A model generated the notes under the pieces. That model saw only the letters and a program-made list of their open reading frames with translations. It did not search any database and was not told the origin of the DNA. The translations under genes and the position numbers were made by a program. Of a stretch of 33,213 nucleotides of DNA, positions 17,133-33,213 are shown piece by piece (the stretch's first letter is position 1; each line of letters begins with the position of its first letter). The stretch comes from Candidatus Kapaibacterium sp. Its GTDB lineage: Bacteria > Bacteroidota > Ignavibacteria > Kapaibacteriales > Kapaibacteriaceae. The DNA is taken from the NCBI GenBank assembly GCA_026390655.1, contig JAPLFN010000113.1:12951-46163 (forward strand), written 5' to 3'.

Positions 17133-18467
17133 TTACCCCTTCACCGGCAAGTAGGTAAGGACGATGCGTTGATTTGTACCAAAGAGTCTCTTTGCTACTC
17201 GTTGGATATCGGCCTTTGTTACCTTCATATACTTTGCCATCTCGTCGTTGATCGCAGACGTTGTTTTATCAAAACGATAGGCATTAGAAAGTGCGAGCGC
17301 TTTTTGGTAGACTCCTGTGCGTCCTTCAACAAAACTGGCCTCAGTTATATTCTTCGCCTTTACCAGTTCCTCATCTGTTACGCCCGTGCTCATCACCAAT
17401 GCAAGTTCCGCATCGATTCCTTTTTCTACATCTGCGAGCCCCTTACCGGGCGCGGCAATCCCAACGCAGTAGATCATTCCAACAAATTCACGAGGGAATA
17501 ATGAGATGCTTGCCTGAACTGCTACCTGCTGGCTGTCTACGAGTGAATGGTAGAATCTTGACGACTCGCCATTTGAAAGGATCGTTGTTAAGAGATCCGC
17601 AGCATAGGAGTCGGGGTCCGTTTGAGGCATTGCACGATAGGACATGAACAACGCGGGCAGTTGTGCCTTGGGGTCGTTAATGGTCTCACGTATCTCGCCG
17701 CTCAGCGGTGCAAGATCACCAACAACTGGTCGGCGAGGCTCTGGGCTACGTTGATACTCGCCGAAGTACGCCAGGATGGTCTCGCGTACAAGTGTTTCAT
17801 CAAAATCACCGCTCACAACAAGGATCGCGTTATTGGGCTGATAGTATGCATCGTAAAAGGCCTTGAACTCGGCGATCGACGCACTGTCAATGTGCTGGGC
17901 GGAGCCGATCGGCGACCACTGGTAGGGTGTGCCGGCAAAAAGTGTTGCCTGCGTCTTCTCCATCCATCCGCCGTACGGTGCATTGTCGTATCTGTTTTTT
18001 CGTTCCTCTTTTACTACACCACGCTGTGTTTCCACACCGATCGTATTGACATGCAGTTTGCGCATTCGTTGTGCTTCGATCCATAAAGCCAAACGCACTT
18101 GATTGGAGGGCAATACAAAGTGATAGACCGTTTGATCATTGCCCGTGAACGCATTCAGCTGCCCTCCGGCCCCATTGACCATTTTGTCGATCGTGGCACG
18201 CTCGATCGCATCTGTTGACTCAAACATGAGGTGCTCAAAGAAATGCGCAAAGCCCGTACGAGCAGGGTCCTCATCACGCGAGCCCACCATATAGTGAACA
18301 ACGGTTGCGACAACTGGAGCTGAATGATCCTCGTGAAGGATCACATGCAGGCCATTTGGTAGGTCATACTCTTTGTAGGCAAGGGGCTTGTATTGCGCCG
18401 TTGCAGACAGTGAGAGACCAAGGACAGTGACAAAAAGCGTCACGATCCGAAAGTTCAATTGATTCAT
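17133..18467 (-). CDS. M16 family zinc metallopeptidase (catalytic subunit)
   Basis: A 444-residue exported protease with a signal peptide (MNQLNFRIVTLFVTVLGLSLSATAQ). The inverted zinc-binding motif HFFEH is intact at residues 75-79, with the distal glutamate in VVKEERKNRYDN (E154 or E155), about 76 residues later as expected for M16B. Two tandem M16 halves are present, the second lacking zinc ligands as usual. It should cleave peptides in the periplasm; the substrate is unknown. The downstream gene encodes an M16 protein without the zinc motif, so the two likely form a heterodimer. The start overlaps the original stop of lnt by ATGA, indicating that it was translationally coupled to lnt. 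Confidence 0.92.
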   Translation of the reverse strand: MNQLNFRIVTLFVTVLGLSLSATAQYKPLAYKEYDLPNGLHVILHEDHSAPVVATVVHYMVGSRDEDPARTGFAHFFEHLMFESTDAIERATIDKMVNGAGGQLNAFTGNDQTVYHFVLPSNQVRLALWIEAQRMRKLHVNTIGVETQRGVVKEERKNRYDNAPYGGWMEKTQATLFAGTPYQWSPIGSAQHIDSASIAEFKAFYDAYYQPNNAILVVSGDFDETLVRETILAYFGEYQRSPEPRRPVVGDLAPLSGEIRETINDPKAQLPALFMSYRAMPQTDPDSYAADLLTTILSNGESSRFYHSLVDSQQVAVQASISLFPREFVGMIYCVGIAAPGKGLADVEKGIDAELALVMSTGVTDEELVKAKNITEASFVEGRTGVYQKALALSNAYRFDKTTSAINDEMAKYMKVTKADIQRVAKRLFGTNQRIVLTYLPVKG

Positions 18468-20133
18468 AGAAAGGTTTTTTCGATCGATGTGAAACGGAAA
18501 GGAAGATTACGAAGGATGAACGGAATTCGTGCAATCAATAGGAGAATGATCGTGCAGATGAGCCCCGTGATGGGCAATGGGTCACCAATGATTGAGTAGA
18601 TAGTCCTAGCATGGGAAAGTGGAGCGCTGCCTACAACCACGCCACGGGTCATTGGCTTGATAGCGGGATGCGGATCCTCGGACCCGTCCGGTCTGATGAT
18701 GCCAGTGATCCCGGAGTTTGCGCATCTAATGATTGTCCTCCTCTGTTCAATGGCTCGCATGCGGGCAATATCGAAATGTTGCTCAGGTCCCCAGGTGCCG
18801 TTGTACCACGCATCATTGGTGATAACGCACAGAAGGTCTGCACCATTGTTGACGCACCATTGTTGAAGAGATCACGTGCCACTTCCGGGTAGATGGACTC
18901 TATGCAAATGATGGTACCCACGTGAGCGATCGTGTCTCCACTTCGCACCAGCTCAAGGGGATTTCTGGTTTGCCCCTTACCCCATGCAGAGATACCTACG
19001 CCCCATTCAATCCACGACATGGCAAAGGTCAGCTGGTCGGCAAAAGGGAGTCGTTCTGCGAAGGGCGTAAGCATAGATTTGCGATGCACGGGCACATCGA
19101 GAACTCCTGCATTGATCATCATTGCTGCATTGAACGTGTCAAACCTCACTGCGGGGTCAATGCGTGAGTGACGAGCCGATGGTGGCGCCTGTCCGGGCGG
19201 ATAAACCATCACATCAGCAAAACCCGTAAGCAAGGAGATCTGAGAAGTGTCAACCCATTTTCTCAACTCTTCCCATTCTGCTTCTAAACGAGGGTCGCGA
19301 ATCGTGTAGGGTATAGCCGTTTCACTCCACACAACCATGTCGGGCTTGGAACCAGAAGACCGCGCTGAATCCACGAGCATTTCATGCACGTCAACTTGTG
19401 CCCTCGTATCGCCCCACTTCTCCCACGGATTCTCATTCGGCTGCACCAACATCACCGATATTGAATCGCCGTTTATAGGGGGCTCGCTCTTGCTCAATCC
19501 CCACGCTCCCCACGCAATGATAAAGACGGCGAGCAAGACCGATGGCGTCCGAATGCGTGCACCCTGTCGAAGTGCGAGGAAAACATAAAGGACCAAGGCG
19601 TTGACTATTCCTATCATGAAGGAGAGCCCATAGACCCCAACAGTATCGGCCACTTGGGCAAAAGGCGTGTGCACTAAGGAGTACCCAATGGTAAGCCAGG
19701 GGTACGATGCATCGGTTTGTCCGTGCAACCATTCAAAGCCTGCGATAGAAAGTGGCGTGGATATCAACATCCAGACAATACCCAGTCTTCTACGAATCGA
19801 CGCAAGCGCTATGAACGGCAGCATGAGGAAGAACGGATGAAACAACCACAGGGCTAAACCACTAGCAAAGAGGTACGGATCCGTTTGTGCCTGCCAGGAG
19901 CACACCCACCAATTGCTAAGACCGTGAAAGACCACGAACGTGAGGTAGAACCAAGCGATCAATGACCACCTGCGCGCTGCCTTTCCTCCATCGATAATGG
20001 CAAGCAGGAGTGGTACATATGCTACGAAGACAAGTAATCCTAACGTTCCGAGGCTGACCTGCGGAAAGGCTATACCTAGAAGCACACCGGACAGAAGTGC
20101 TCGTATGACTGGTCGTTGAAGGAACGTTTGCAT
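18464..20133 (-). pseudogene. lnt: Apolipoprotein N-acyltransferase, disrupted by a 14-bp duplication
   Basis: Lnt N-acylates lipoproteins in the inner membrane using a nitrilase-type Glu-Lys-Cys triad. The N-terminal multi-helix membrane domain and most of the nitrilase domain are intact: E271 (VVWSETAIPY), K352 (HRKSMLTPFAERLPF) and C410 (GTIICIESIYPE) are all present. After DLFNNGA (~427) the frame is broken and 67 foreign residues follow, ending at 18649. The missing part is open in another frame: ADLLCVITNDAWYNGTWG, then EQHFDIARMRAIEQRR, IIRCANSGITG and a last membrane helix, ending at 18464. A direct repeat at 18841-18866 explains the break; removing one 14-nt unit restores a 551-residue protein, normal for Lnt. 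The gene may be a recent pseudogene, a phase-variable allele, or an assembly error. The original stop overlaps the M16 start (ATGA). Confidence 0.88.
18841..18866. repeat. Tandem duplication that frameshifts lnt
   Basis: CACCATTGTTGACG (18841-18854) is followed directly by CACCATTGTTGA (18855-18866): a 12-bp perfect direct repeat with a 14-bp period. Deleting one period rejoins LFNNG to ADLLCVITND, the expected Lnt sequence. A 14-bp insertion shifts the frame because 14 is not a multiple of three. The form fits replication slippage. Confidence 0.9.
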
Positions 20134-30186: not shown

Positions 30187-30254
30187 GGTTACCAGTTACG
30201 AGTTACGAGTTACGAGTTACGAGTTACGAGTTACGAGTTACCAGTTACGAGTTT
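30187..30254. repeat. Heptanucleotide tandem repeat GAGTTAC at the murQ-dedA junction
   Basis: Eight contiguous 7-bp units occupy 30193-30248 (CAGTTAC, six GAGTTAC, CAGTTAC), flanked by partial units GGTTAC (30187-30192) and GAGTTT (30249-30254). In the direction of transcription the unit is GTAACTC, with a TAA in every copy. The murQ stop codon (30245-30247) is inside the array, and the array ends 2 nt before the dedA GTG. It therefore forms the entire intergenic region and replaces any Shine-Dalgarno for dedA. Confidence 0.97.
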
Positions 30255-31832: not shown

Positions 31833-32582
31833 TTATGCGGTCGGTTCTTCAGCAGTTCTTGTCTTGCGTTTTCGCAGGGAATCGCCCTTGAGTTCGAGGC
31901 GATGAGCGTCGTGAATGATGCGGTCTAATATAGCATCGGCAATGGTCTTCTCACCGATGACTTCGTACCAGTTGTGAACCGGTACTTGAGAGGTGAACAT
32001 GGACGACCGCTTTCCGTGCCGATCTTCAATGACCTCCATGAGTATGGCCCGGCTCTGCTGATCTAAGGGTTGCATACCGAAATCATCGATGATGAGTAGA
32101 TCCTGCTTCTCCATCTTTACCAGTTCCCTAAGGTAGGACCCGTCGGCCTTGGCCAGCTTGAGGCGTGAGAAGAGCTTGGCGCTGTGTTCGTAGAGCACCT
32201 TGTACCCAAGCGAGCAGGCCTGATGTCCGATGGCAGAGGCGATGTAACTCTTGCCGATACCCGTGCTGCCGGTGATCAAGACGTTCTCTCTGCGTTCGAT
32301 GAATGTGCAATCGGCCAGGCGCAAGATCTGGTTCTTGCTCGCCTGACGCGTGTCAGCAAAGCTGATCTGTTCAACCATAGCCTTGTAGCGGAAGCGCGCG
32401 TTCTTGATCCCCCGCTCTTGCTTGCGGTTGGAGCGGTCGTCCCACTCTGCGTTGATGAGCCACTCTAAGAGCTCATCAGCCGTGTGGTTGACCGTTTTGT
32501 CTGCCTCTACGCTCATGGTGAAGGCACGAACCATGCCGAGCAATTTCATTGCCTTCATCTTCTCCAGTATTGCTTCATTCAT
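31833..32582 (-). CDS. istB: IS21 helper ATPase IstB
   Basis: A 249-residue AAA+ ATPase that assists the IstA transposase in target capture and strand transfer. Walker A is GSTGIGKS (105-112), Walker B is LLIIDDF (162-168), and a DnaC-like sensor region follows (SSMFTSQVPVHNWYEVIGE). The N-terminal helical region (MNEAILEKMKAMKLLGMVRA) is the usual IstB start. Length is normal for the family and the frame is intact, so the element may be active. The ATG overlaps the istA stop (ATGA). Confidence 0.96.
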   Translation of the reverse strand: MNEAILEKMKAMKLLGMVRAFTMSVEADKTVNHTADELLEWLINAEWDDRSNRKQERGIKNARFRYKAMVEQISFADTRQASKNQILRLADCTFIERRENVLITGSTGIGKSYIASAIGHQACSLGYKVLYEHSAKLFSRLKLAKADGSYLRELVKMEKQDLLIIDDFGMQPLDQQSRAILMEVIEDRHGKRSSMFTSQVPVHNWYEVIGEKTIADAILDRIIHDAHRLELKGDSLRKRKTRTAEEPTA

Positions 32583-33213
32583 GAGATTCTCCTTCCTTGC
32601 GCTGTTGATGGATCACGTGGTTTACGTGCTTGCTCGTCGGTGTCAGCGGCATTGCCGCCGGCCGGCGTGCCCTGGTCTGCGTAATAGTCCTTGCCTCTGA
32701 TGTTTCCATGCTCGGGCATCGTGCGTTGTTCATCGTCTTGCTCGGGGAAGGCATCAAGCCCTCGCTCCAAGATGTCGGCTATGGCCCGGTAGGTATAGAG
32801 CCCGCACAACTGCGCACGTTGGCAGGCCCGCTCAAGCCTGTCATGGCCCACACGCGAGGCAAGGGAAAGAATACCTTGACACGACTTGTAGGCCTGCTCG
32901 GGATGCGGCCGCCGGTTGAGGATCTCTGTCAGCAGAAGCTCCGCATGTGGCCCCACGACGCGGGCCCGGGCCAAGAAGTACTCCGGGTTCCAAGCGGCCA
33001 TCACCTGGTGGTGGCTGGCCAGGTGCGCCGGTAAGGTGGTGTAGCTATGCGCGCGGCGCGAGCGCGCATGGCTGGCTATCAGCTCAAAGCGGTAGTAGAT
33101 CTCTACCCGTGAAGCGCTGTAGACCACGCGCAGCTTCCGGCTGATGTAGGCGTACGGGATGCTGTAGTAGTGCTTGTCCGGGCTCAGGCTAACGTGGCCG
33201 TTCTTCAGGGCCG
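32579..33213 (-). CDS. istA: IS21 transposase IstA, C-terminal part
   Basis: The last 210 codons of the transposase, entering from the right edge of the window. In the frame running from the edge it reads ALKNGHVSLSPDKHYYSIPY and then AYISRKLRVVYSASRVEIYY, matching the post-catalytic Mu-transposase C-terminal beta-barrel region found in IstA ('v..d.hyysVPy.yi...v.vr.....veiy'). The DDE catalytic core would lie outside. Acidic and Pro/Gly-rich C-terminal residues (PEQDDEQRTMPEHGN...) complete the protein. The stop overlaps the istB start, implying translational coupling. Confidence 0.93.
   Translation of the reverse strand, partial: ALKNGHVSLSPDKHYYSIPYAYISRKLRVVYSASRVEIYYRFELIASHARSRRAHSYTTLPAHLASHHQVMAAWNPEYFLARARVVGPHAELLLTEILNRRPHPEQAYKSCQGILSLASRVGHDRLERACQRAQLCGLYTYRAIADILERGLDAFPEQDDEQRTMPEHGNIRGKDYYADQGTPAGGNAADTDEQARKPRDPSTAQGRRIS

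What the first reader, a model, noticed from the sequence alone, without database searches (positions are those of the whole stretch)
18464..20133. lnt interrupted by a precise, potentially reversible 14-bp tandem duplication
Seen: a 12-bp perfect repeat with a 14-bp period sits in the conserved nitrilase domain of Lnt. Removing one unit restores an uninterrupted 551-codon gene with the conserved TNDAWYNGTWGPE block, and the original stop still overlaps the M16 start. Everything else, including the Glu-Lys-Cys triad and the distal frame, is intact, so the lesion is recent or switchable. Known: Lnt completes lipoprotein maturation in most diderms, although some Bacteroidota can use alternative N-acylation. 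Inference: phase variation, a fresh pseudogene, or an assembly error at a repeat.
Basis: partly seen in the sequence, partly recalled or inferred. Interest (0 to 1): 0.72.

Follow-up and report, generated by a model that had tools for sequence, protein, structure and literature searches.

The report
Lipoprotein enzyme gene broken by duplication
In this draft genome of an uncultured bacterium, the only gene found for the enzyme that finishes lipoproteins is thrown out of frame by a small, young 14-base tandem duplication; this is most simply a recent knock-out allele or an assembly flaw, and nothing shows that it is a switch.

Summary
The perfect match is 13 bp, not 12. All 21 same-family relatives with an assembled lnt have the unit once in one open frame. 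All 21 have Val where the 5' copy encodes Phe, so the unit was GTCAACAATGGTGC and the copies differ by one base. The distal frame is conserved: 0 of 25 family-invariant residues changed, and nonsynonymous divergence is like that upstream. If real, the lesion is young (at most about 1.2% neutral divergence). The genome shows no second Lnt and no Lnb; Lgt and LspA are open. LNT_N is present in 105 of 105 good-quality genomes of the class, so loss would be unusual. Nothing supports switching: no relative varies in copy number and the repeat has two copies only. The genome is a 131-contig draft with short N gaps, so a mis-joined contig end remains a serious rival that only reads can settle. Verdict: ordinary recent frameshift allele or assembly error; low interest.

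The parts
18649..20133 (-). truncated lnt frame, 494 aa (about the first 430 aa Lnt-like, last 64 aa out of frame)
   Evidence: TIGR00546 lnt 179.9 bits, cutoff 132.9; PF20154 LNT_N and partial PF00795; aligns to solved Lnt up to the catalytic Cys region
18854..18867 (-). 5' copy of the 14-bp unit, TTCAACAATGGTGC, with a derived G-to-T (Val to Phe)
   Evidence: sequence; Val in 21 of 21 relatives
18840..18853 (-). 3' copy of the 14-bp unit, GTCAACAATGGTGC, ancestral form in the downstream frame
   Evidence: sequence; VNNGAD as in relatives
18464..18853 (-). displaced 3' part of lnt: 129 codons plus stop, open and conserved (TNDAWYNGTWGPE block and hydrophobic C-terminal stretch)
   Evidence: matches solved Lnt chains directly after the end of the N piece, E 4.6e-13; 0 of 25 invariant columns changed
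17133..18467 (-). M16 peptidase-like gene directly downstream; ATG overlaps the lnt stop
   Evidence: M16-type hits; a homologue follows lnt in 21 of 22 same-family loci, the other being cut by its contig end, with the overlap shared by the nearest relatives

Best explanation
A 14-bp tandem duplication (unit GTCAACAATGGTGC) arose recently in the nitrilase half of the only lnt gene found in this Kapabacteria-like bacterium, by ordinary slippage or repair error (inferred). It moves the ribosome into the wrong frame soon after the catalytic cysteine, so the protein ends about 64 residues later without the rest of the nitrilase domain and the C-terminal membrane part. The product is almost certainly inactive (inferred), so cells with this allele should make diacyl rather than triacyl lipoproteins (inferred). 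It is a loss-of-function variant sampled in the assembly; reversion to one unit is possible in principle at the low rate of any short two-copy repeat, but it is not a programmed switch.
For: Duplication beyond chance. All 21 same-family relatives with an assembled lnt have a single unit and an open gene of about 525 to 619 codons. Relatives give the ancestral unit exactly, Val in 21 of 21. The distal part is fully constrained: 0 of 25 invariant columns changed there and 0 of 88 upstream; pN 0.21 and 0.17 downstream against 0.22 and 0.23 upstream versus the two nearest relatives. That bounds the age at about 1.2% neutral divergence. No -1 slippery heptamer or useful internal start in the shared open stretch. 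No second Lnt found.
Against: The source is a draft genome (131 contigs, 92% complete, short N gaps), so the allele may not exist in any cell. LNT_N is present in all 105 good-quality genomes of the class searched, which makes real loss unlikely beforehand. The 5' copy needs one extra substitution within 28 bp, at most 28% likely within the age bound.
Confidence: 0.5

Rival explanations
1. Assembly error: two contig ends overlapping by 13-14 bp were joined without collapsing the overlap, with one wrong or strain-variant base, and the organism's lnt is intact.
For: The genome is scaffolded, with N gaps of 4 to 105 bases, some inside genes such as a murC-like gene; one gap has the same 5 bases (GCATA) on both edges. 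A relative's apparent lnt break is itself a 234-N gap. A base differing between the copies fits a contig-end error or strain variant. lnt is kept throughout the class.
Against: There are no Ns at the site, and the window's other large genes are open. K-mer assemblers normally join at longer overlaps (own knowledge).
Confidence: 0.38
2. Phase-variable switch: lnt is turned off and on by gain and loss of the 14-bp unit, to alter lipoprotein acylation.
For: Loss of one unit would bring the two frames together. Reversible duplications inside coding genes are documented (penA, PMC4169377, about 1e-6 to 4e-5; pneumococcal capsule genes, cited in PMC4243769).
Against: One unit in 21 of 21 relatives, with no repeat tract to drive switching. 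Only two copies, already differing by a base. Switched genes are usually surface-structure genes, not a housekeeping acyltransferase (own knowledge).
Confidence: 0.06
3. The gene is still read as one protein by ribosomal frameshifting or by a 14-nt hop between the matching codons of the two copies.
For: A net -1 shift in the 220-nt shared open stretch would rejoin the frames, and the distal frame is conserved. Identical AAC AAT GGT codons lie 14 nt apart.
Against: No canonical slippery heptamer in the stretch, and the element is absent from relatives. Conservation of the distal frame is equally expected for a young lesion.
Confidence: 0.02
4. Old pseudogene in a lineage that no longer needs Lnt.
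For: lnt is dispensable in several diderms (PMC7240156).
Against: No stops, further indels or changes at invariant positions on either side; lnt universal in the class.
Confidence: 0.02

Closest known systems
De novo tandem repeats in the penA beta-lactamase gene (PMC4169377)
   Same: Short tandem duplication inside a coding gene, reversible in principle by slippage
   Different: There the repeats change activity under drug selection and reversion was measured; here the repeat breaks the frame and no reversion or selection is known
Capsule phase variation by duplication within capsule genes of Streptococcus pneumoniae (Waite et al. 2001, 2003, cited in PMC4243769)
   Same: Intragenic duplication inactivating a gene
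   Different: Those duplications are reported as reversible; here only one sequence exists and the gene is housekeeping
Apolipoprotein N-acyltransferase Lnt (TIGR00546; structures 5n6h, 6nwr)
   Same: Both pieces match, with Glu, Lys and Cys of the triad
   Different: Reading frame broken after the catalytic Cys

Membership tests
Lnt (TIGR00546) | score over curated cut-off; LNT_N membrane domain plus nitrilase domain | tested here: met
   179.9 bits against 132.9; PF20154 and PF00795
Lnt (TIGR00546) | Glu-Lys-Cys triad (E267, K335, C387 in E. coli) | tested here: met
   aligned in phmmer output to 5n6h; triad from PMC10313180
Lnt (TIGR00546) | complete nitrilase domain and C-terminal membrane part in one frame | tested here: not met
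   rest of the domain lies in another frame
Phase-variable (contingency) locus | both states present in one population | not testable with these tools
   no reads and no second genome of the species held
Phase-variable (contingency) locus | repeat kept or variable in copy number among relatives | tested here: not met
   one unit in 21 of 21
Programmed -1 frameshift gene | slippery heptamer in the overlap | tested here: not met
   none in the shared open stretch
Old pseudogene | additional decay | tested here: not met
   0 of 113 invariant columns changed
Assembly artefact | reads lacking the assembled sequence | not testable with these tools
   reads not held

The most novel reading that the evidence does not exclude
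A lipoprotein acyltransferase that is reversibly switched by a short tandem duplication, so that a free-living bacterium toggles its whole lipoproteome between diacyl and triacyl forms.
Probability: 0.04. Interest if true: 0.75.

Novelty: new member of a known kind. Interest (0 to 1): 0.17.

Why it matters
If real, it would be a recent loss of an enzyme otherwise found in every good-quality genome searched in its class, in a genome without a recognised replacement, and so a small natural test of whether these bacteria need triacylated lipoproteins. As it stands it mainly shows that a single break in a draft genome needs read support.

Tried and rejected
A second lnt: the other CN_hydrolase genes are an NAD synthetase-like protein (recognised by eye from the sequence, not by a family search) and a short stand-alone hydrolase without a membrane domain. 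Lnb: no match. A second broken lnt in the genus (G008): it is a 234-N gap. LolC/LolE versus LolF, which would predict whether lnt is dispensable: several LolC/E-like hits, none over the cut-off, so uninformative. One family search failed because of a wrong frame. The scan of genome contigs gave relatives with names but no copy of the same species.

Full report
What is there. The lnt gene lies on the minus strand at 18464-20133. Its first frame runs 494 codons to a stop at 18649, and scores 179.9 bits on TIGR00546. At 18840-18867 a 14-bp unit is repeated in tandem. The 13 bases that match perfectly occur twice in the window and never in 100 shuffles, and 20 simulated windows gave no comparable tandem match. 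The element is unique in the genome, even with three mismatches allowed.

What it does to the gene. Read to the lesion, the protein aligns to solved E. coli Lnt through the Glu, Lys and Cys of the catalytic triad (residues named in PMC10313180). From the second copy onward another frame continues the same protein: it matches Lnt chains from the next residues on, E 4.6e-13. The truncated protein therefore has its catalytic residues but not the second part of the nitrilase fold or the C-terminal membrane part. Loss of activity is inferred, not shown. Both frames are open together for about 220 nt, without a canonical -1 slippery heptamer; the first in-frame ATG of the downstream frame is beyond the TNDAW block.

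Origin. Fifty-nine of 60 relatives have lnt. All 21 same-family genomes with an assembled gene have one unit and one open frame. One further genome of the genus seemed broken, but the break is 234 Ns. Relatives read VNNGAD where this gene reads FNNGA followed by the second copy, VNNGAD. Val is found in 21 of 21. The most economical history is an exact duplication of GTCAACAATGGTGC followed by G to T in the 5' copy.

Age. Neither side has decayed: none of 88 family-invariant columns upstream and none of 25 downstream is changed; nonsynonymous differences per site are 0.21 and 0.17 downstream against 0.22 and 0.23 upstream in comparison with the two nearest relatives. If the gene has drifted free since the lesion, neutral divergence since then is at most about 1.2%. 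An old pseudogene is excluded; a young lesion and an intact gene misassembled predict the same picture.

Context. The genome is 2.63 Mb in 131 contigs, 92% complete. It has one LNT_N gene, open Lgt and LspA genes, and no Lnb_N. Because the assembly is incomplete, absence of a second copy is not final. LNT_N is present in 105 of 105 good-quality genomes of the class. lnt is dispensable in some diderms, apparently those with LolF (PMC7240156), but the Lol type could not be decided here. Nearest named relatives are metagenome-assembled genomes labelled Candidatus Kapaibacterium and Ignavibacteria; that this genome is itself a metagenome-assembled one is inferred from its fragmentation and relatives.

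Artefact or allele. Short N gaps of 4 to 105 bases, some within genes, show a scaffolded assembly. One has the same five bases on both edges, as an uncollapsed overlap would. The lnt site has no Ns, but a closed gap would leave none. I judge a real allele somewhat more likely than an artefact; the two cannot be separated without reads.

Switching. Short intragenic duplications can revert: two penA repeats at 9.3e-7 and 3.6e-5 (PMC4169377), and capsule genes of pneumococcus vary by reversible duplication (cited in PMC4243769). That makes reversal possible here, not programmed. Two copies, already different, absent from all relatives, in a housekeeping gene, give no support for a switch.

Noticed in passing
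window 30188-30253: Array of about 9 copies of the heptamer GTTACGA just upstream of a DedA/VTT-domain gene (start 30184), overlapping the end of an SIS-domain gene. Exact arrays of three or more copies occur at about a dozen places in this genome, none for the reversed control.
   Followed up: partly
window 31833-33211: IS21-type istB and an istA-like frame (by position, no family hit) cut off by the contig end, next to tRNA-Arg.
   Followed up: no
contig C101 12899-12950 (L075): A run of 52 N ends exactly where the window begins.
   Followed up: no
L058 14067-14079: A 13-N gap flanked on both sides by GCATA, as if a small overlap had been left uncollapsed.
   Followed up: partly
window 17133-18467 and relatives: An M16 peptidase-like gene follows lnt throughout the family where the downstream DNA is held, often with overlapping stop and start codons.
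   Followed up: partly
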